A stretch of DNA of 64,000 nt, taken from the IMG/VR virus record IMGVR_UViG_3300026484_000157, positions 62,001-126,000 of that record, one strand, 5' to 3'. The notes beneath the pieces are model-generated. The model ran no database searches, was not told the origin of the DNA, and saw nothing but the letters and a program-made list of their open reading frames with translations. The first letter of the stretch is position 1. The number at the start of each line of letters is the position of its first letter. Below are positions 8,223 to 60,499 of the stretch, piece by piece. Position numbers and translations under genes: made by a program. This stretch comes from a virus.

Positions 8223-8897
8223 ATGGAAAAAATAATAGAACAAATGGCACATCTACAACATGCACTAAATTCTAAGATACACCCAGAATGGTATAAGCAA
8301 GGAAATGACTGGGATACTGCAATCATGGTTGAGTCAGCAGAGTTGTCAGATTCTCTGCAATGGAAATGGTGGAAAAATATGGATGACGATTGGTCAAATG
8401 TAGAAGTGGAATTGGTAGATTTATTTCACTTCATACTATCTAAAATGATAGAAAAGAATAAGATGAATATTGTGAACAAAGTGATAACTAGAGCACTTAC
8501 AACATTCCAATTATCAAAGCCAATTGATGACAATGATATGAAAAGAGAACTAGTGCTTATGTTCAACAAATCACTTGTACAAGCTACATTGGAAGATAAA
8601 ATGCATGATGCAATTATGTATTGGTATAAAATGTGGCTTACTATTGGTAAAACAAAAGAAGATATCTTGAAACAATATTTTGTCAAGAACATTCTAAACA
8701 CATTTAGACAAGACAATGGTTATAAAGATGGAAGTTATATCAAAGAATGGGTAGGTAAAGATGGGAGAAAATATGAGGACAATGTAATTGCATTTTACAT
8801 TGCAGATGATTTAAAATTAGATGACACATTTCCAGATGAATTTGCTAAGGCATTGGATGAAGTTTATGCAGATACCAAAATTCATCATCTCAATTAA
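8223..8897 (+). CDS. dut: Dimeric all-alpha dUTPase (MazG-like superfamily)
   Basis: 224 aa; hydrolyses dUTP (and dUDP in this family) to dUMP, Mg-dependent. Metal-binding helix motifs ESAELSDS and EVELVDLFHF are present with the WKWWK segment, and the C-terminal KNILNTFRQDNGYKDGSY is a signature of this family. From memory it is very close to the Campylobacter jejuni dimeric dUTPase. It supplies dUMP and keeps uracil out of DNA. A second, unrelated trimeric dUTPase lies at 27095. RBS leader is AAAGGATTCGGA. Confidence 0.9.
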   Translation: MEKIIEQMAHLQHALNSKIHPEWYKQGNDWDTAIMVESAELSDSLQWKWWKNMDDDWSNVEVELVDLFHFILSKMIEKNKMNIVNKVITRALTTFQLSKPIDDNDMKRELVLMFNKSLVQATLEDKMHDAIMYWYKMWLTIGKTKEDILKQYFVKNILNTFRQDNGYKDGSYIKEWVGKDGRKYEDNVIAFYIADDLKLDDTFPDEFAKALDEVYADTKIHHLN

Positions 8898-14418: not shown

Positions 14419-16287
14419 ATGGCTGATGTTTATTCTCTTGAAAAAGGTCTGGATCATCTTTATCCAGAATATCAACTACAATATAAAGATAATATTGATG
14501 GGTTTAACAAGACATTTAATCCATCAATGATTGATGTGAATAAAACTATGTTCAAGAAATCTATGGAAATGATAGAGCATCATAAATGGATGAAAGAATG
14601 TAAATTCACACTAGCAACATATACTGATCCAAAAGAGGATTATGAATTAGATATTGAAAAGTTTGACAACATTGATCAGCTAATTGCTCTAATAGACGAC
14701 CGATGTGAAATGCAAGACCCAGAGGATAACCCAGTCCTAAAAGAGCCAAAGAAAATTGTCGCATTCGATTTAGAAACAACTGGTCTTAGAAACAGACATC
14801 AGAGAATTGGTGGTAAAAAAGAGTCACAAGTAGGTATTGTTGGAATATGTGTTGCATATTCTGAAACTGAGGGTTATTATATACCAATTAAACATAATGA
14901 GTTAGATGGCATTAAGAATTGGACTATTCAAGATGCAGTTAAGCTTATCAATTATTTCCAACAAGATAACCATCTGGTAATATGGCACAATGCAATATAC
15001 GATTTATTTGTAAGTATATCATCAGGTGTAACTTTGAATAAATCAATGAACCATGATACCTATTTATTATGGAAGATGACATTTGAGGAAGAATTTAGCA
15101 ATCTATTTCAATACGGACTAAAGCTCTTATCAGAAAGATTCCTTAAAAGAAAAATGCAGACAATTAACGATCTGCTTGGTGTTGATGCGAAAGCACACAT
15201 AGAATTTCAGAGATTACCATCTGTAAATGCAGTAACCTATGCAGTGTCTGATGCAACTAACACTTATGCACTTTGGAAATATCTATTTAGCAAAAAATTC
15301 AGAAGAAACCCATATACTAAACAGCCAATAGCAACTAGACTGGAAATGCGATCTATCTATGATTCATTATCAATGCTAAGTACTGGGATTCCAATAAACA
15401 CAAGTCATGCAATCCCAATGCTGAAAACAATTTACAGAAGACAAATATTATTACAGAGTAAATTTGACCAATTGGTAGGTGATGGATTCACAGTAATAAC
15501 TAGTGATGAAAAATGTGGAATGTATATTGGTAAAACAATAATGGGTGCTTGGGAAGAGTCAGGAAAAGACAAAGATCAGGGATATAAATTTTTGGAAGAA
15601 AAATTTGGAATGAAGATGACTGTTAGAAATGGTGCAGGTGGAGTGAAAAAAGAGACATTCTCAAATGCTGATTCAGTTCTTGAAGCATTACTTAAATCTC
15701 TCCCAAATATGGATTTCATTAAAGATGAACAGAAGAAATCTTTAACATCAATCATTAAATATATACAAGCATATCGATCATTAGACCATGAAAGATCTGG
15801 ATATCTTGGAATAATAAGATCAGTAACATTGGATGATAGAGGATATCCTTTTGTTCACAACTCGCTGAACCTTAATGGTACCGACTGTGTAATAAAAGAT
15901 ACACCAATAAACATAAGAGTTAACAAATCTAATAAGCCAATATCCACGACGATGGACAAGCTAGATAGATATTGTGATTATGATGATCTTGAGGGCGAAT
16001 ATGAGTTTAATGAATACATAGAAATTGAAACTATTGATGGCTGGGTACATATAACTCATTTTGTTACTAAACATAAAGACACAATTGAAATATCAACTAA
16101 ATCAAGATCTATTGGTGTAGCAACTAGACATAGATTCATGAATGAAAATGACAGATGGATATATGCTAATGAATTGAAAATTGGGGATTTTGTCAAAACA
16201 ATAGATGGTTATGAAGAGGTTACAAAGATAATCAATTTAAAAGGACAAATGACATATGATATTGTCACCAACCACAAACAATTATAA
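14419..16287 (+). CDS. polA: Family A DNA polymerase, N-terminal fragment plus N-intein
   Basis: 622 aa. Residues 110-290 form a DEDD 3'-5' exonuclease: D117/E119 in AFDLETTG, D195 in WHNAIYDL, D278 in YAVSDATN. Residues 300-489 correspond to the thumb of a Pol I-type enzyme. At residue 490 the chain enters an intein after LNLNGTD with CVIKDTPI; the intein block TKHKDTIEISTKSRSIGVATRH is Hint-like. The frame stops after MTYDIVTNHKQL, in the middle of the last intein strands. The remainder starts at 17091. Splicing would create GTD-TGRYS, matching the T-x-TGR motif of family A. The palm with the catalytic Asp residues is in neither fragment. Confidence 0.85.
   Translation: MADVYSLEKGLDHLYPEYQLQYKDNIDGFNKTFNPSMIDVNKTMFKKSMEMIEHHKWMKECKFTLATYTDPKEDYELDIEKFDNIDQLIALIDDRCEMQDPEDNPVLKEPKKIVAFDLETTGLRNRHQRIGGKKESQVGIVGICVAYSETEGYYIPIKHNELDGIKNWTIQDAVKLINYFQQDNHLVIWHNAIYDLFVSISSGVTLNKSMNHDTYLLWKMTFEEEFSNLFQYGLKLLSERFLKRKMQTINDLLGVDAKAHIEFQRLPSVNAVTYAVSDATNTYALWKYLFSKKFRRNPYTKQPIATRLEMRSIYDSLSMLSTGIPINTSHAIPMLKTIYRRQILLQSKFDQLVGDGFTVITSDEKCGMYIGKTIMGAWEESGKDKDQGYKFLEEKFGMKMTVRNGAGGVKKETFSNADSVLEALLKSLPNMDFIKDEQKKSLTSIIKYIQAYRSLDHERSGYLGIIRSVTLDDRGYPFVHNSLNLNGTDCVIKDTPINIRVNKSNKPISTTMDKLDRYCDYDDLEGEYEFNEYIEIETIDGWVHITHFVTKHKDTIEISTKSRSIGVATRHRFMNENDRWIYANELKIGDFVKTIDGYEEVTKIINLKGQMTYDIVTNHKQL
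15886..16284 (+). other. N-intein (133 aa) in DNA polymerase
   Basis: Starts at Cys (TGT 15886) directly after GTD and holds an N-terminal splicing block (CVIKDTPINI) and a TRHRF block with the conserved His. Ends at the stop codon before the C-terminal HN block, which is encoded at 17091-17135. Confidence 0.8.
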
Positions 16288-17104
16288 GACAATAAAATCA
16301 TATACAAATGGCTTCACAAATATAAAGAAATTTGTGAAGCTACTACACACTAATAAAGGTTACAACTTTAAGAGATACAACTTCATGTATCCAATCAGAT
16401 TCAAGATAGTTCTGTTCTTATTCATAATGAGGGAGCAGAACTCAATATATAAGTATAAAATTCCAGAAAACTGTAAAATGAGATATGATACTGATAAAAT
16501 CATAATAACATGTCCATTTCATGGAGACTTCAGTCAAAGAATAATAAAACACATAAGTGGTAATGGTTGCCCAAAATGTGCATCAAATATACGGCTGACA
16601 AATGAAGAATTCGACTCGAGATTGAAGTTAATAGATAAAAGTTTGATAAGATTAGATGAATATATTTCAATGGAACATGGACTAGATATAAAATGTATGA
16701 GATGTGGAGATATATTTAATAAAACTCCAAATATATTATTATATGGTAATAGTGGATGTAGTGTATGCAGATCTAAAGAATCTAAAGGTTCATTAGAAAT
16801 TTCACATCAACTAAATCTATTCAAAGTAAGGTATATTAAAGAATATAGATTCAAGGATATAGCAAGAATGCCATTTGATTTTTATTTGCCAGATTATAAT
16901 ATATGCATCGAATATGATGGGGAACAACACTTCACATATAATAATCCATTTAGTTCGTTAGTAGGAAATACTATTAAAAATGACCAAATCAAGAACAATT
17001 TCTGTGCTAAGAACAATATCAAATTAATCAGGATACCCTATACAAGTTATAAGGATATAAGATTAATAATAGTAACAATAAAGGACAACAATGAAAAGAT
17101 ATGA
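16256..17104 (+). CDS. Vsr-like (EDxHD-fold) homing endonuclease
   Basis: 282 aa from 16256 (AAAAGGACAA lies 11 bases upstream); ATG 16428 is an alternative start. Zinc-finger repeats ITCPFHGDFSQ ... GNGCPKC and a second CMRCG ... GCSVC precede a nuclease domain MPFDFYLPDYNICIEYDGEQHF with a C-terminal IKLIRIPY, the layout of Vsr-like homing endonucleases. It sits exactly in the break of the polymerase intein, overlapping the N-intein gene by 32 bp and the C-intein gene by 14 bp. It would spread the fractured intein by cutting uninterrupted polymerase genes. Confidence 0.8.
   Translation: MILSPTTNNYKTIKSYTNGFTNIKKFVKLLHTNKGYNFKRYNFMYPIRFKIVLFLFIMREQNSIYKYKIPENCKMRYDTDKIIITCPFHGDFSQRIIKHISGNGCPKCASNIRLTNEEFDSRLKLIDKSLIRLDEYISMEHGLDIKCMRCGDIFNKTPNILLYGNSGCSVCRSKESKGSLEISHQLNLFKVRYIKEYRFKDIARMPFDFYLPDYNICIEYDGEQHFTYNNPFSSLVGNTIKNDQIKNNFCAKNNIKLIRIPYTSYKDIRLIIVTIKDNNEKI
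16311..16340 (+). repeat. Perfect 11-bp inverted repeat
   Basis: GCTTCACAAAT, 8-nt loop, ATTTGTGAAGC, 24 bases after the N-intein stop, inside the 5' part of the endonuclease frame. It could damp translation of the endonuclease from the polymerase mRNA. Confidence 0.45.
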
Positions 17105-17135
17105 TTATATTGCAAATGGGTTTGTTTGCCATAAC
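17091..17135 (+). other. C-intein of 15 residues
   Basis: An unusually short C-intein (natural ones are mostly about 35 residues), ending with the conserved His-Asn before Thr +1. Confidence 0.75.
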
Positions 17136-17384
17136 ACTGGACGGTATTCCAATGCTAAAACAAGATTTAATAGATTAACTATCAATGTCACAAAAACTGG
17201 TAAAGTCAATATAAAATTTAAAGATTCATCTATCCTACCAAATATGCAAGGACTATCAGGTAGACCATATATTACGAAACCTGCTAAACAACTTAAGTCT
17301 ATTCCAATATCTATCGAGCAAGACATAACAAGTTTAAATGATAAGGTTGAAGAGTTATTCAGAGAAGAAATACTAAAATTATAA
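17091..17384 (+). CDS. polA: C-intein (15 aa) plus polymerase C-extein fragment
   Basis: 97 aa with its own RBS (AAAGGACAACA). The first 15 residues, MKRYDYIANGFVCHN, are the terminal intein block ending in HN; the next residue is Thr +1 of TGRYS. After splicing the extein continues with a short linker and LPNMQGLSGRPYITK (compare PNLQ of family A enzymes) and stops 82 residues after the junction. The fingers/palm motifs A, B and C are missing, so another polypeptide must supply them. A dead remnant is the alternative. Confidence 0.8.
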   Translation: MKRYDYIANGFVCHNTGRYSNAKTRFNRLTINVTKTGKVNIKFKDSSILPNMQGLSGRPYITKPAKQLKSIPISIEQDITSLNDKVEELFREEILKL

Positions 17385-17405
17385 TAATCAAGAAGGATAA
17401 CAACA

Positions 17406-19709
17406 ATGAAATTAGATGAGTTTCAACAAAAGATAGTTGATAGCAACCAAGATCAATCAACTCTAGTTACTATTACGGCAGGTGCAGGATGTGTAGCATA
17501 TGACACCCCAATTGTAGTAAAAATAAAAGATAACATACCACAAGATGTTTATTATAAGCTTTCCAAAATATTAAATGATAAAATGATAACCACAATAGAA
17601 ATTTCGAAGTTATTCGAAATCAAGGATCTTCTTGAATATATAGAAATAGACACACCTGATGGTTGGCAACCGATAGATGATGTGTTTGAAACTGGTGATA
17701 AAAAGTCATATAACATAACGACTGAGACTGGTGATATAACTGTTTCTGAAGATCATTGGTTATTAGACAACAACAATAACTGGTCTTCTGTCGCTTCGCT
17801 TCATGTTGATGATATAATACAAACCAGAGATGGGAACGAGAAGATTATATCGAAGAAATCAATTGGTACAATAAAAACTATGGACATTACTGTTGGACAT
17901 GAGAATCATAGATATTACACTCAAAATATAATATCACACAACAGTGGTAAAAGCACTGTTTTCGCAAATAAAATAGCTAGGTTAATTTTAGAAGGTCATG
18001 CAAAACCTGATGAGATAATAACACTAACCTTCACAAATAAAGCAGCACGGGATATTAAAAGTAAAATAAAAGCACTACTTCCAAAGGGTGCTGAACTTCC
18101 ACATGTATCAACAATTCATAGCTTATTTATCAAACTACTAAGAGATTTCAAAGTCAATCCTATTGTAATGAATGAATGGGGCAATATTTTAACTTTGAGA
18201 TCAATTATTGAACAACATTACCAATTTGATACAAAAGGTGAGCTTACTGCATTTACTAGAGATATTCTTGCTTATGTAGATCAATATCAATTATCTGCTC
18301 CTGATATCAACATTGATGACTGGAAATTATCTGATTATGTTGAAGATTGTACAATCACAAGTAAAAAATTTAACAAAATTTACAAAGAATATGATAAGTT
18401 TAAGAGGGAGAAGAATTTATGGTCGTATAACGATTTAATTTCATCTAGAGTAAAAGAAGTAATCGATTTTAATAAAATTAATAGTTCAACCAAATATTTA
18501 TTCAATGATGAGGCTCATGATGAGACATTGGCAGAATTACTTCTAATAAGAGATATAGCAAGTCAAAATATCTTATATAACATACAAGATAACTGCCAAG
18601 AAATTTATGGGTGGAGATTTAGTCGTGCTGATCTATTAGCAGATAAATCCTTTTGGGCAGATCACTTCAATAAATATGAAGAGTACAAACTTCTGAAAAA
18701 TTATAGATCAACTGAAAATATATTGAAAGTGTCGAATTTATATAGATCACATCTGGATGATATCCAATTAATACCCACTAAAGAAAACTTGAAGGGATCA
18801 GTTAAAATATCTCAGGTGGAAATGGAAACTCATGAAGGTAAATATATCGCAGTTGAGATAAAGAAATTACTGGAAGAGGGTACTGCTCCAAAAGACATAA
18901 CAATATTGGTAAGATCAAATATGTTCATTAAATCAATACTTGAGCCACACTTAATAGAATCAAATATACCTTACACAATTGATACTCCAAAATCAAAAAA
19001 GAAGATGTTTGAATCTCCAATAAACAAGATATTCCTATCATTTATGGAAATATATTCGAATAACGAGAATTTACTAAGCATAATCTCAATATGTGATTAT
19101 TATATTGGTGTTGGTGCAGGATCTAAAAAGACTCTAATGGATTCATTTATTAACACTTCAATGTTAACACCAGATAAGAAATTCGATAACATAAGATACA
19201 CTTTTAATAACATATGTGAGTTTTCAACTCAATATTCATCTGCTTCAAAATTGCCAGTAATACTAGATTACTTTGAATCTTTAATAAGACAATTCATAAA
19301 AACTTCTGAATACAATGAAAATAAGATCAATCTCATAAGAAAAACTATCACAAATTATGTGTATACAATCTATGAAGATTATCCATCTTACACAATCCAT
19401 GAGATTTTTGCTGAAATTATAACACAAATTGACTCATTTGAAGATGATGCTATGAATAAGGTTAAAATCATGACATATTATGGTGCAAAAGGATTATCAC
19501 TTCCATATGTATTTGTATCAGATATGTCATTAAAAGCACCTAAATCGAATAGTGATAGTGACAATTCATTATATGTAGCATTATCTAGGGCTGAAACAAG
19601 AATGTATATTGTTTCATCAAGTATAAAAATTAACAGAAGTTTTGGCAAAATGAAACAAAATATCCCATCAATATGGACTAAAACATATAACAAGCTTGTT
19701 GGTGGTTAA
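17406..19709 (+). CDS. UvrD/PcrA-type helicase with a mini-intein in the P-loop
   Basis: 767 aa precursor, about 616 aa after splicing. Superfamily 1A 3'-5' helicase: Q-motif at the start (DEFQQKIV), P-loop TAGAG-SGKST interrupted by the intein, motif Ia TLTFTNKAARDI, motif II YLFNDEAHDET, motif IV region LLKNYRSTENI, motif V AKGLSLPYVFVSD, motif VI YVALSRAETRMYIV. Until spliced it cannot bind ATP. RBS AAGGATAACAAC (class I). Role in replication restart or in repair is inferred. Confidence 0.9.
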   Translation: MKLDEFQQKIVDSNQDQSTLVTITAGAGCVAYDTPIVVKIKDNIPQDVYYKLSKILNDKMITTIEISKLFEIKDLLEYIEIDTPDGWQPIDDVFETGDKKSYNITTETGDITVSEDHWLLDNNNNWSSVASLHVDDIIQTRDGNEKIISKKSIGTIKTMDITVGHENHRYYTQNIISHNSGKSTVFANKIARLILEGHAKPDEIITLTFTNKAARDIKSKIKALLPKGAELPHVSTIHSLFIKLLRDFKVNPIVMNEWGNILTLRSIIEQHYQFDTKGELTAFTRDILAYVDQYQLSAPDINIDDWKLSDYVEDCTITSKKFNKIYKEYDKFKREKNLWSYNDLISSRVKEVIDFNKINSSTKYLFNDEAHDETLAELLLIRDIASQNILYNIQDNCQEIYGWRFSRADLLADKSFWADHFNKYEEYKLLKNYRSTENILKVSNLYRSHLDDIQLIPTKENLKGSVKISQVEMETHEGKYIAVEIKKLLEEGTAPKDITILVRSNMFIKSILEPHLIESNIPYTIDTPKSKKKMFESPINKIFLSFMEIYSNNENLLSIISICDYYIGVGAGSKKTLMDSFINTSMLTPDKKFDNIRYTFNNICEFSTQYSSASKLPVILDYFESLIRQFIKTSEYNENKINLIRKTITNYVYTIYEDYPSYTIHEIFAEIITQIDSFEDDAMNKVKIMTYYGAKGLSLPYVFVSDMSLKAPKSNSDSDNSLYVALSRAETRMYIVSSSIKINRSFGKMKQNIPSIWTKTYNKLVGG
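17490..17942 (+). other. Mini-intein (151 aa) in helicase P-loop
   Basis: Cys1 (TGT 17490) to terminal Asn (AAC 17940-17942), ending YYTQNIISHN with Ser +1. Contains the TVSEDHWLL block with its His. No homing endonuclease domain. Insertion point GAG-C...N-SGKST is the ATP-binding loop. Confidence 0.85.
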
Positions 19710-27094: not shown

Positions 27095-27934
27095 ATGACG
27101 ATCGAAGAGACTATGGCTATCATAGATGCTAATGGCATTTGTTATGATACAATAAATAGGAACCATTTAAAAATTGATACTGCCAATGGCACCATAAATT
27201 TCTACCCATCTTCAGGGACATTCCATTATAACAATGAAAAATCAATAGGTAAATCTGTTTACCAACTGATGGAACATTTAGGAATAAACGAGCCTAGATC
27301 ATTTGTTGCTTCATCTGATGAAGAGGAAGATGACACATTCGATTGGCTAGATGAAAATGTTCCATCTATTGAGAAATCACCGATTGAAAATAAAACTATT
27401 AAGCCACCACCTCCACAGAAATCAAATAATAACATTCTGCGAAATATCTCAATGGCTGATAGTAGAAATATTATGAAGCTTAAATATAAGCGACTGGATA
27501 AAGATGCATTTCCACCAAGAAAAACCAGACTAACTGATGCAGGTGTAGATTTATATGCAGTAAAAGATGCAGTATGGCAACAACATGGATCTCAATGGTT
27601 CTGCATTGTTGAAACAGGAATTGCTCTTGAAATTCCCCCATATCATTATCTAGCAACTGCACCTAGATCATCTGCATTATTTGGTGATGATCATGTGTCA
27701 ACATTCCATTCTGTATTAGATACTGGATATAAGGGAGAGATCACATTTTTGTGTAATTCATTTAGTGAAGAAATGCCACAGATTATAAAAAGAGGTGATA
27801 GAATGTCGCAGGTGGTTTTAGTTCCTATCCCAATGATAGATACTTCTTTTGAAGAGGTTGAAGAATTACCAAGCCATTCAGATCGTGATAAATTAGGATT
27901 CGGAAGTTCAGGAGACACACCATGGGAAAAATAA
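27095..27934 (+). CDS. dut: Trimeric dUTPase with extra N-terminal domain
   Basis: 279 aa. Residues about 130-279 hold all five motifs of trimeric dUTPases: I DAGVDLYA, II APRSSAL, III VLDTGYKGEI, IV GDRMSQVVL, V DKLGFGSSG. Residues 1-60 form a small alpha/beta unit (NGTINFYPSSGTFHYN) seen in other phage proteins; 61-125 is a linker rich in Asp, Glu and Pro. Hydrolyses dUTP to dUMP. With the dimeric enzyme at 8223 the phage has two non-homologous dUTPases. Overlaps the dNMP kinase gene by 13 bp. Confidence 0.9.
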   Translation: MTIEETMAIIDANGICYDTINRNHLKIDTANGTINFYPSSGTFHYNNEKSIGKSVYQLMEHLGINEPRSFVASSDEEEDDTFDWLDENVPSIEKSPIENKTIKPPPPQKSNNNILRNISMADSRNIMKLKYKRLDKDAFPPRKTRLTDAGVDLYAVKDAVWQQHGSQWFCIVETGIALEIPPYHYLATAPRSSALFGDDHVSTFHSVLDTGYKGEITFLCNSFSEEMPQIIKRGDRMSQVVLVPIPMIDTSFEEVEELPSHSDRDKLGFGSSGDTPWEK

Positions 27935-28665
27935 AAACAATATATCTAGTAACTGGCAAAAAGAGATCAGGTAAAGATTACTTATCGGATTTAATGCTAG
28001 ATGAACTGAATAACTCTGTAACTGCAAAGTTTTCAGGACTGATGAAGTCAATTACTCAATCATTATTTTCTATTGATTCTGATCAACTAGAAGAATATAA
28101 AAATGATGAAACAATACTTATTGGTGATGTGACTAAAGTTAGAATGGACTCTCAAAGTTTGGCAACTCATTTAGTTGAGTTATATGACATTTTCAATAAT
28201 TCATTCATATTTGGAGAACATGACAAGATAAACATTAATTATGATATTGTCTATCAAGTAGTGAAAAAAGTGATGAAAGATACGAAAGTTGAAGATATTA
28301 CTTTCAGAAAATGGCTTCAAATATTTGGGACAGATATTACATATCCATTATTTGGTGATGATATCTGGGCTAGATACACATCTTATGAAATCAACCAGCT
28401 ACTTAAAAAACATGACTCTGTTATAGTTTCTGATTTCAGATTTCCTCATGAATATGAAGTAGTTAATTCAATGGCGAATAATCTCTATAAACTAGTAACC
28501 ATTAAGGTAATAGATCACAATCTTGAAGATTCATCTGATTCTCATATTAGTGAGAATGCCTTGAGTGGGTTTCACTTCGATAAACTGTTAGATAATTCAG
28601 TAAAAAACGGAGAAGAACCTATAAGAAAGTGGATAAATGAAATCATAATAAAAGGAGTCGATTAA
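27922..28665 (+). CDS. Deoxynucleoside monophosphate kinase (T4 gp1-like)
   Basis: 247 aa; phosphorylates dNMPs to dNDPs for phage DNA synthesis. P-loop GKKRSGKDYLS at the start, then FRKWLQIFGTDI and VSDFRFPHEYEV, wording typical of T4 gene 1-type kinases. Gene 1 enzymes accept modified dNMPs as well, so this one could serve an unusual base. Coupled to the dUTPase. Confidence 0.8.
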   Translation: MGKIKTIYLVTGKKRSGKDYLSDLMLDELNNSVTAKFSGLMKSITQSLFSIDSDQLEEYKNDETILIGDVTKVRMDSQSLATHLVELYDIFNNSFIFGEHDKININYDIVYQVVKKVMKDTKVEDITFRKWLQIFGTDITYPLFGDDIWARYTSYEINQLLKKHDSVIVSDFRFPHEYEVVNSMANNLYKLVTIKVIDHNLEDSSDSHISENALSGFHFDKLLDNSVKNGEEPIRKWINEIIIKGVD

Positions 28666-46539: not shown

Positions 46540-46841
46540 GAGTAATAGCAGGGATAATCCCTTTGAAAAACAAACGAGTAAAAGCTGAAAAGAAATTAGT
46601 GACTATTGACATTAAGGCTACTATGTCAGAGGGGGATATGGCGAATTTCCTTGGAATGCTTGATACTATACAGAATTTAGGTGCTGTTGGTTCATCAAGA
46701 ACTATTGAATTATGGGTAGATGGTGATGGTGCTTCATCACCTAAATTTGAATATAAGATTAACCCACCAAGTTTAGTGGAACCAATAATGACAGATGAAT
46801 CTGCTAATGGCACATTCAGATTTGAAATGGAGGGACAATAA
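46536..46841 (+). CDS. Hypothetical protein with IAGI N-terminus (101 aa)
   Basis: MRVIAGIIPLKNKR resembles the N-terminal tag of the products at 52436 and 57580. Remaining domain alpha/beta. RBS GGGAGATAACAA. Unknown. Confidence 0.6.
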   Translation: MRVIAGIIPLKNKRVKAEKKLVTIDIKATMSEGDMANFLGMLDTIQNLGAVGSSRTIELWVDGDGASSPKFEYKINPPSLVEPIMTDESANGTFRFEMEGQ

Positions 46842-47410
46842 TGGATAATACAATTTTGGTTGACATGGACAATACAGCATTTGATTTTACAAAGCAATAT
46901 GTAAAATATCATAATAAACAAGTTGGTACGACAATAAGACCTATAGATCTTAAGGGTGCAGGTTACAATTTCTTCTCAATATTAGGAGTTTCAGAAGAAG
47001 GTAAATACAATTATTTAAGATTACCTAAATTTTTTGATTCAATGCCACCAATGGAGGGTGCAGTTGCAATATTGAATAAATTACATAAACAAGGTATCAA
47101 CATAATTTTTACAACTACTGGTGTTGTGCCTGAGGCATATAGTGGCAAAATTAACTGTTTGAAACGATATTTTAAATGGTTCAATATGGAAGATCATCTA
47201 ATCATGATTAAGAACAAGCATTTGTTGAAACCTGCAATCATAATTGATGATAACCCCCATGTAATTAGAAATTCAAGAGATCATCATCATGTAATTATAT
47301 TTGATGATGACTGGAATCAGAACATGGAATGTGACTATCGGACTAGAAGTTGGGATGATGCTTTATATCAACACATTCTAAACACAATAAGGATACAAAA
47401 TGAGAAATAA
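46841..47410 (+). CDS. HAD-family 5'(3')-deoxyribonucleotidase
   Basis: 189 aa; dephosphorylates dNMPs. Motif I VDMDNTAFDF (DxDxT), motif II IIFTTTG, motif III Lys near KHLLKP, motif IV IIIDDNP. Size and order match the NT5C group. In a phage with dNMP kinase and a PurA/PurZ-like enzyme it helps set the deoxynucleotide pool. Confidence 0.8.
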   Translation: MDNTILVDMDNTAFDFTKQYVKYHNKQVGTTIRPIDLKGAGYNFFSILGVSEEGKYNYLRLPKFFDSMPPMEGAVAILNKLHKQGINIIFTTTGVVPEAYSGKINCLKRYFKWFNMEDHLIMIKNKHLLKPAIIIDDNPHVIRNSRDHHHVIIFDDDWNQNMECDYRTRSWDDALYQHILNTIRIQNEK

Positions 47411-59101: not shown

Positions 59102-60499
59102 ATGGAAAATGAAACAATATTAGTCGAAGGTAAAATCAATATTTTGCTTGATCATCTATATGGCTCATCTGCTAAAGGGCAAGTATGTGCAGCGATAGCA
59201 GATAAAGAACGACCAAGTATTCTTATTGCTAATCATAGCACATCGGCATCACATACAGTAATGGAAGGGGATGAAGAATTTGTATTTAAGGCTCTACCAT
59301 CTGCAACATTCTTATGTAAAACAAGAGATGACTACAATCCATCAATATTTATGGCAGCATCATCAGGATTTGAAATTGATCAAGTTATCAAAGAGATGAA
59401 ATGGATCAATAATCCAGAAATTAAAGTTTATGTACATCCATATGCAGTTATAGTTCTTCAGGAACATAAAAATCTAGAAGCAGGTCTTAATAGAGATGGG
59501 TCTTCATCTGATAACAGTGGAACATTACATCTTGGATCTACAATGAGTGGACAATCTTATGCATTTGCAGATAAAATGACAAGAAGATCACCATCATCAT
59601 TAGCGAAGGATTATGCTGAGGAACTATATAAACATAATATTATAGTTATGGCTACACCATGGGCATTCCAACTACAATTATTATCAGAATTAGCAAAGGA
59701 TGATGCAACTGCTCTTGCTGAAATGCCACAAGGATTTCCATTGTCAATTGATCATGGACCAGAGTTTCCTTATTCAACATTCAGAAACATTACACCTATG
59801 CAATTATTGGCAGACTTAGGTCTTAATGAAGCATATTTAGGATCAGTTATTGGTAATATTAGATCACTCCCTATCAGAGTCAGTAACAGATTTGTTGGTA
59901 ATAACATGGACAATGTAATGTTATTCGCTAAATTTGATGCTGAAAACAAGATGAGTGAGTCATCTTGGAACACACCAGAGCAACTTGGAATGACATATTC
60001 AGATGTAAATGCAATCACATATGATCTATTGATGGGTAATGAAAAACGATTCAAAAATTGGATCATAACAGACATTAAAGGTGTAACTGGAACATCTGGA
60101 CCATTTGAAGAAGATATGGAGGAGATTTCATGGAGAGAATTATCTGATCATTTAACCTCAATTGCAGGTAAAGATGTAAATGTTGAAGAAATTACTACAC
60201 TTACAAAATTAAATAGAAGAATAGCAAAAATAGCCGATGAGAGATCATTATCTATAGATATGCTGATGAAATTTATGGTAGCAGTTAATCCTACTCATCT
60301 ATCAATCACATTCTTGAACTATATTGATCCAAACTTGGAAGGTGCTACTTCAATAGAGGAGATCAACAAAAGTGAGATATTTAATGATTGGTCTATTAGA
60401 GCAATTGAAGACTTGAGAGAAGCATATAATGGTGAGGTATTTCCAAAAATTACTGCTCTTCAAACTGGTAAATATTTAGAAAATGTAATATTCATTTAA
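59102..60499 (+). CDS. Adenylosuccinate synthetase homologue (PurA/PurZ-like)
   Basis: 465 aa. Landmarks of the family are present in order: YGSSAKGQV at residues 20-28 (where PurA has GDEGKGK), ASHTV (catalytic His), GSTMSGQSYAFADKMTR, QGFPLSIDHG-x3-PY. The catalytic Asp of PurA is replaced by Ser, as I recall for PurZ, which makes the precursor of 2-aminoadenine DNA from dGMP and Asp. The Asp-binding Arg loop is not clear. Longer than known PurZ. The exact substrate is undecided. Start 59102 follows AAAAGGACTCAA. Confidence 0.65.
   Translation: MENETILVEGKINILLDHLYGSSAKGQVCAAIADKERPSILIANHSTSASHTVMEGDEEFVFKALPSATFLCKTRDDYNPSIFMAASSGFEIDQVIKEMKWINNPEIKVYVHPYAVIVLQEHKNLEAGLNRDGSSSDNSGTLHLGSTMSGQSYAFADKMTRRSPSSLAKDYAEELYKHNIIVMATPWAFQLQLLSELAKDDATALAEMPQGFPLSIDHGPEFPYSTFRNITPMQLLADLGLNEAYLGSVIGNIRSLPIRVSNRFVGNNMDNVMLFAKFDAENKMSESSWNTPEQLGMTYSDVNAITYDLLMGNEKRFKNWIITDIKGVTGTSGPFEEDMEEISWRELSDHLTSIAGKDVNVEEITTLTKLNRRIAKIADERSLSIDMLMKFMVAVNPTHLSITFLNYIDPNLEGATSIEEINKSEIFNDWSIRAIEDLREAYNGEVFPKITALQTGKYLENVIFI

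What the first reader, a model, noticed from the sequence alone, without database searches (positions are those of the whole stretch)
59102..60499. PurA/PurZ-like enzyme with Asp to Ser change in the P-loop: possible 2-aminoadenine (Z) or other purine-modified genome
The GDEGKGK loop of PurA reads GSSAKGQ. Loss of that catalytic Asp in favour of Ser is, as I recall, a mark of PurZ. The genome also carries a family A polymerase fragment (Z-phages use the family A DpoZ), a MazG-superfamily enzyme at 8223, a dNMP kinase and a deoxyribonucleotidase. But no DatZ-like HD protein is seen and the enzyme is longer than PurZ.
Basis: partly seen in the sequence, partly recalled or inferred. Interest (0 to 1): 0.8.

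Follow-up and report, generated by a model that had tools for sequence, protein, structure and literature searches.

The report
Divergent PurZ-like gene in large phage
A large uncultured phage carries an enzyme whose sequence marks and family tree place it with PurZ, the phage enzyme that makes 2-aminoadenine (Z), so its DNA may carry Z in place of some or all adenine; but the usual helper genes were not recognised, so this stays a testable proposal.

Summary
At 59102-60499 (+) lies a 465-aa enzyme of the adenylosuccinate synthetase superfamily whose P-loop reads GSSAKGQ (59162-59182), with Ser where PurA has catalytic Asp13. It is not a PurA: it falls in the Ser-type PurZ/PurZ0 clade (100/100), also with diagnostic columns removed; grouping its clade with Asp-type PurA is rejected (AU p=0.0135). 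At 15 columns separating Z-cluster PurZ from PurA it has 10 PurZ, 1 PurA and 4 other states. It is divergent (best matches about 30-37% identity), scores below NCBI's PurZ cut-off, and shares a roughly 65-aa insertion site with Flavobacterium phage MaF61. Most likely it joins Asp to dGMP towards dZTP. A trimeric dUTPase-like gene overlapping a dNMP kinase gene is a candidate substitute. Related PurZ-like genes sit on contigs up to 436 kb, some also carrying DatZ-like, MazG-like, PurB or IMPDH genes. MaF61 is cultured and also encodes PurB, guanylate kinase, MazG and an HD phosphatase, so LC-MS of its DNA would test the lineage.

The parts
59102..60499 (+). PurZ-like 2-amino-adenylosuccinate synthetase, 465 aa (ORF open from 59018; likely start 59102)
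59162..59182 (+). P-loop GSSAKGQ; Ser22 replaces the catalytic Asp13 of PurA
59885..60091 (+). insertion of roughly 65 aa after PIRV, at the same site as in phage MaF61 and absent from known PurZ
60188..60220 (+). aspartate-binding loop EITTLTKLNRR, PurZ-type (PurA ATTGRRRR)
60308..60322 (+). TFLNY in place of the PurA TKLD nucleotide-specificity motif; PurZ has NFxN/Q
27095..27934 (+). trimeric dUTPase-like protein with ~130-aa N-terminal extension; candidate stand-in for DutZ (dATP/dGTP hydrolysis), inferred only
27922..28665 (+). deoxynucleoside monophosphate kinase overlapping the Dut-like gene; candidate dZMP kinase, inferred only
8223..8897 (+). dimeric all-alpha dUTPase (dUTPase_2), not MazZ
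46841..47410 (+). 5'(3')-deoxyribonucleotidase (NT5C family)
14419..16287 (+). N-terminal piece of a family A DNA polymerase with exonuclease domain, ending in an N-intein
17091..17384 (+). C-intein (FVCHN) followed by ~80 aa of polymerase; the O-helix piece lies outside the window at record position 17268-18050

Best explanation
The gene encodes a divergent PurZ-type enzyme of a large phage. It condenses L-aspartate with dGMP, using a nucleoside triphosphate, to N6-succino-2-amino-dAMP. The host's adenylosuccinate lyase (PurB) would then release fumarate to give dZMP, and the phage's own dNMP kinase (27922-28665) or host kinases would take it to dZTP, which the phage polymerase inserts opposite T. 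Z therefore replaces some or all adenine, probably protecting the DNA from host restriction. With no recognisable DatZ or MazZ, dATP removal and dGMP supply would fall to other enzymes, most plausibly the trimeric dUTPase-like protein overlapping the kinase gene (as DutZ does in PurZ0 phages), or substitution is only partial. Shown: family, PurZ-type residues, PurZ-clade placement, absence of the usual partners from the record. Inferred: substrate, product, dZTP route and presence of Z in DNA.
For: Best PDB, PHROG and NCBIfam matches are all PurZ. The tree puts it inside the Ser-type clade (100/100), with PurZ rather than PurZ0 (97/93 and 95/88), unchanged when diagnostic columns are removed; grouping with PurA rejected. 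Three functional sites are PurZ-type (Asp13 to Ser, TTxTK loop, TFLN), and 10 of 15 PurZ/PurA-separating columns are PurZ-type against 5 of 15 for PurZ0. Catalytic His41, Thr129, Arg143 and Gln224 equivalents are kept. Its clade-mate MaF61 also encodes PurB, guanylate kinase, MazG and HD_3 proteins; phage PurB is uncommon and is found in the known Z phage Ghobes.
Against: No DatZ/HD, MazG/DUF550/DUF5664, PurB or IMPDH found in the 126-kb record. The polymerase O-helix keeps Tyr where both DpoZ groups have Phe. The score is far below NCBI's PurZ cut-off (117.7 against 300 bits). One base-pocket residue (S-2L Asn49) is Ser here and varies within this clade, so the substrate could differ. The branch is long.
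Confidence: 0.62

Rival explanations
1. The enzyme is PurZ-like but the phage substitutes Z only partly, because dATP is not removed efficiently; Z is a minor base.
For: No DatZ and no DpoZ mark recognised; in S-2L, DatZ is the main factor excluding adenine (PMC8599892).
Against: The Dut-like protein could remove dATP as DutZ does in PurZ0 phages; the record may be incomplete.
Confidence: 0.3
2. A phage-borne PurA-type metabolic gene that boosts ordinary adenine nucleotide synthesis in the host.
For: Same superfamily; large phages carry other nucleotide genes, here RNR, dCMP deaminase and dNMP kinase.
Against: PurA's catalytic Asp13 is lost and the enzyme falls outside PurA in all trees; AU p=0.0135.
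Confidence: 0.12
3. A PurZ-fold enzyme that has drifted to another purine substrate (for example IMP, dIMP or a modified base), serving a different base modification.
For: Base-pocket Asn49 is Ser and varies within the clade; long branch; clade-specific insertion near the sugar-recognition loop.
Against: The Ser beside the 2-amino group and the aspartate loop are kept; no other base-modification gene stood out among the proteins scanned.
Confidence: 0.15

Closest known systems
PurZ of cyanophage S-2L and vibriophage phiVC8 (Z-cluster phages)
   Same: Ser at the Asp13 position, TTxTK aspartate loop, NFxN-type motif, catalytic residues; same clade
   Different: 31% or less identity, about 100 aa longer, roughly 65-aa insertion, Asn49 to Ser; no datZ or mazZ beside it; large phage
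Adenylosuccinate synthetase of Flavobacterium phage MaF61 (PQ858689, ORF141)
   Same: Closest annotated phage relative (30% over 89%), same clade, insertion at the same site, Ser P-loop
   Different: MaF61 also has PurB, guanylate kinase, MazG, an HD phosphatase and a family B polymerase; no Z reported for its DNA
PurZ0 of Arthrobacter/Gordonia/Microbacterium phages
   Same: Ser-type; those phages use a dUTPase-like DutZ instead of DatZ/MazZ, and this record also has a trimeric dUTPase-like gene
   Different: Outside the clade holding the query; keeps Glu after the Ser and Asp in the nucleotide motif; DpoZ-1 polymerase with helix-O Phe
PurA (bacterial and archaeal adenylosuccinate synthetase)
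   Same: Fold family and most catalytic residues
   Different: Asp13, Gly-Arg loop and TKxD motif absent from the query; separate clade

Membership tests
PurZ (2-amino-adenylosuccinate synthetase) | Ser in place of catalytic Asp13 | tested here: met
   feature from PMC12884076
PurZ (2-amino-adenylosuccinate synthetase) | Falls in the PurZ group, not PurA | tested here: met
   AU test
PurZ (2-amino-adenylosuccinate synthetase) | Reaches NCBIfam NF038379 cut-off (300 bits) | tested here: not met
   117.7 bits; best family but below cut-off. A naming rule rather than a defining trait
PurZ (2-amino-adenylosuccinate synthetase) | Uses dGMP to make dSMP | not testable with these tools
   needs biochemistry
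Z-cluster phage (datZ-mazZ-purZ) | datZ and mazZ present, usually beside purZ | tested here: not met
   record may be incomplete
PurZ0 phage (dutZ, often dmtZ) | PurZ0-clade enzyme | tested here: not met
   PurZ0 branches outside the query's clade
PurZ0 phage (dutZ, often dmtZ) | DutZ (dATP/dGTP-hydrolysing dUTPase relative) | tested here: inconclusive
   a trimeric Dut-like gene is present and matches a 3-sequence DutZ profile (3e-14), but so would any dUTPase
DpoZ polymerase | Phe instead of Tyr in helix O | tested here: not met
   query RAIGKGLGLSLLYQ, DpoZ-1 NFSLIFG; feature from PMC8599892
Z-containing genome | 2-aminoadenine in virion DNA | not testable with these tools
   needs LC-MS

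The most novel reading that the evidence does not exclude
Z-containing DNA extends beyond the small podo- and siphoviruses to a deep PurZ lineage in large phages (this one, MaF61 and relatives on contigs up to 436 kb), with different accessory sets: some carry DatZ-like plus MazG-like, PurB or IMPDH genes, while this one replaces DatZ/MazZ with a dUTPase-like enzyme and uses a polymerase without the DpoZ mark.
Probability: 0.4. Interest if true: 0.78.

Novelty: new variant of a known kind. Interest (0 to 1): 0.6.

Why it matters
Known Z-DNA phages are small sipho- and podoviruses (the largest Z-cluster phage record seen here is 67.5 kb). If this lineage makes Z, complete or partial replacement of adenine also occurs in large and jumbo phages, with a new branch of the key enzyme and a different way of keeping dATP out. 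The pattern in relatives (phage-borne PurB, guanylate kinase and IMPDH) would mean some phages carry much more of the Z pathway themselves instead of relying on the host. It is directly testable in MaF61, a phage already in culture.

Tried and rejected
Reading the enzyme as ordinary PurA: rejected by residues, trees and AU test. Reading the gene at 8223 as MazZ: rejected, it is a dimeric dUTPase. 'DTGY' in the Dut-like protein as a DutZ mark: dropped, since as I recall ordinary dUTPases can have a Gly there. MaF61's HD protein as DatZ: not accepted, its best PHROG is a dNMP phosphatase, not dATP triphosphohydrolase. Looking for missing polymerase motifs A and C by pattern: no convincing hit. 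A single-protein scan of viral contigs found nothing close; the first genome-contig scan failed for lack of conserved stretches. The viral-contig scan used a pattern that included Ser at the P-loop as one of its two patterns, so the universal Ser among those loci is partly by selection; the archaeal and bacterial PurA rows were collected without that pattern.

Full report
Setting. The window is positions 62001-126000 of a 126,269-base virus record with no end repeats, so possibly incomplete. I predicted 178 ORFs, 174 on the + strand. The record encodes a terminase, class I ribonucleotide reductase, dCMP deaminase, clamp loader, DnaB-like helicase, UvsX-like recombinase and DNA ligase. Genes in the window have Shine-Dalgarno-like sites (69 of 87 ATG starts against 384 of 3000 random positions). 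That argues against a Bacteroidota host, which as I recall rarely use such sites.

The gene. The ORF at 59102-60499 is an adenylosuccinate synthetase relative (Pfam 3e-12; PHROG 1211 1e-25). Its closest solved structures are S-2L PurZ (9e-23) and phiVC8 PurZ (3e-18), ahead of any PurA (1e-8). NCBIfam ranks PurZ first (117.7 bits) ahead of archaeal-type PurA (88 bits), but below the curated PurZ cut-off of 300. In 50,697 phage records the best match is Flavobacterium phage MaF61 at 30% over 89%.

Functional sites. On E. coli PurA numbering the query has Ser for Asp13 (GSSAKG), ITTLTKLNRR for the PurA ATTGRRRR loop, and TFLN for TKLD. It keeps the His41, Thr129 and Arg143 equivalents and the QG of the Gln224 segment. 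At 15 columns that separate PurZ of eight Z-cluster phages from 17 PurA sequences, the query is PurZ-type at 10, PurA-type at 1 and neither at 4; two PurZ0 score 5/5/5 and 5/6/4. The columns were chosen by contrasting the same sets, so this describes resemblance and is not a statistical test. In the S-2L pocket described in PMC8342488, Asn49 corresponds to Ser48 here; clade-mates have Asn (MaF61) or another residue, so base recognition may differ.

Phylogeny. With bacterial PurA and archaeal long and short PurA included, all Ser-type sequences form one clade (100/100) next to archaeal short PurA. PurZ0 branches first, then a haloarchaeal sequence, then PurZ in the wide sense (95/88) with the query in a four-member clade {query, MaF61, L054, L055} at 98/97. 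Removing the diagnostic columns keeps that clade and its place. Forcing the clade to group with Asp-type PurA is rejected (p-AU 0.0135). The query's branch is long, so its exact position inside PurZ is unsure.

Partners. In the known pathway PurZ makes dSMP from dGMP, host PurB and kinases finish dZTP, DatZ removes dATP and MazZ supplies dGMP; PurZ0 phages use DutZ and sometimes DmtZ (PMC12884076). In this record HD_3 gave no match at E<=1; profiles of DatZ, MazZ, MazZ-2 and DUF5664/550 gave none; PF00206 (PurB), PF03819 (MazG) and PF00478 (IMPDH) gave none. Present are a dimeric dUTPase (8223), a trimeric dUTPase-like protein (27095) overlapping a dNMP kinase gene, and an NT5C nucleotidase (46841). 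Two dUTPase types in one genome is compatible with one being repurposed, but this is inference. The polymerase O-helix keeps Tyr where DpoZ-1 has Phe, the only change PMC8599892 reports as shared by both DpoZ groups.

Wider picture. A scan of viral contigs gave 80 loci, many on contigs of 120-436 kb. In three of these (308, 427 and 436 kb) an HD protein whose best PHROG is dATP triphosphohydrolase sits beside a MazG-like ORF; in the 308-kb one IMPDH follows. PurB-like lyases were found in six of eighteen records searched, MaF61 included, and IMPDH in three. Phage PurB is uncommon in public phage records (43 matches with one query, several in short or unannotated records), and one clear case is the known Z phage Ghobes. 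MaF61 itself has PurB with the adenylosuccinate lyase C-terminal domain, guanylate kinase, MazG, HD_3 and a family B polymerase. The paper describing MaF61 contains neither adenylosuccinate nor adenosuccinate, and does not mention restriction, so DNA modification was apparently not examined. I found no paper in the held library reporting PurZ in jumbo phages; subscription papers are not covered.

Verdict. The enzyme is most likely a PurZ-type synthetase from a deep, divergent branch. Whether this phage has Z in its DNA, and how completely, is open.

Noticed in passing
window 14419-16287, 16256-17104, 17091-17384; record 17268-18050: Family A DNA polymerase in pieces: N-part ending in an N-intein, an HNH endonuclease, a C-intein plus about 80 aa, and an O-helix piece about 59 kb upstream; motifs A and C not located.
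   Followed up: partly
window 17406-19709: Helicase (PHROG 1967) with an intein-like C-terminal junction (TQNIISHN|SGKST).
   Followed up: no
window 8223-8897 and 27095-27934: Two unrelated dUTPase types in one phage genome.
   Followed up: partly
L115, L116, L118 (contigs of 427, 436 and 308 kb): DatZ-like HD gene directly beside a MazG-like gene on PurZ-encoding jumbo contigs; IMPDH follows in L118.
   Followed up: partly
L011:7956-9077 (Bacillus phage vB_BpsS-140): Ser-type PurZ-like gene annotated purA in a Bacillus phage; 7 PurZ, 6 PurA and 2 other states at the 15 columns.
   Followed up: partly
L111 (Halobacteriales MAG): Ser-type PurA/PurZ relative in an archaeal genome bin that also holds a canonical PurA.
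   Followed up: partly
L106 (Agrobacterium rubi plasmid) and related Rhizobiaceae plasmids: 'Adenylosuccinate synthetase' of 537 aa whose N-terminus looks like a kinase P-loop (GPISVGKS), not the PurA loop.
   Followed up: no
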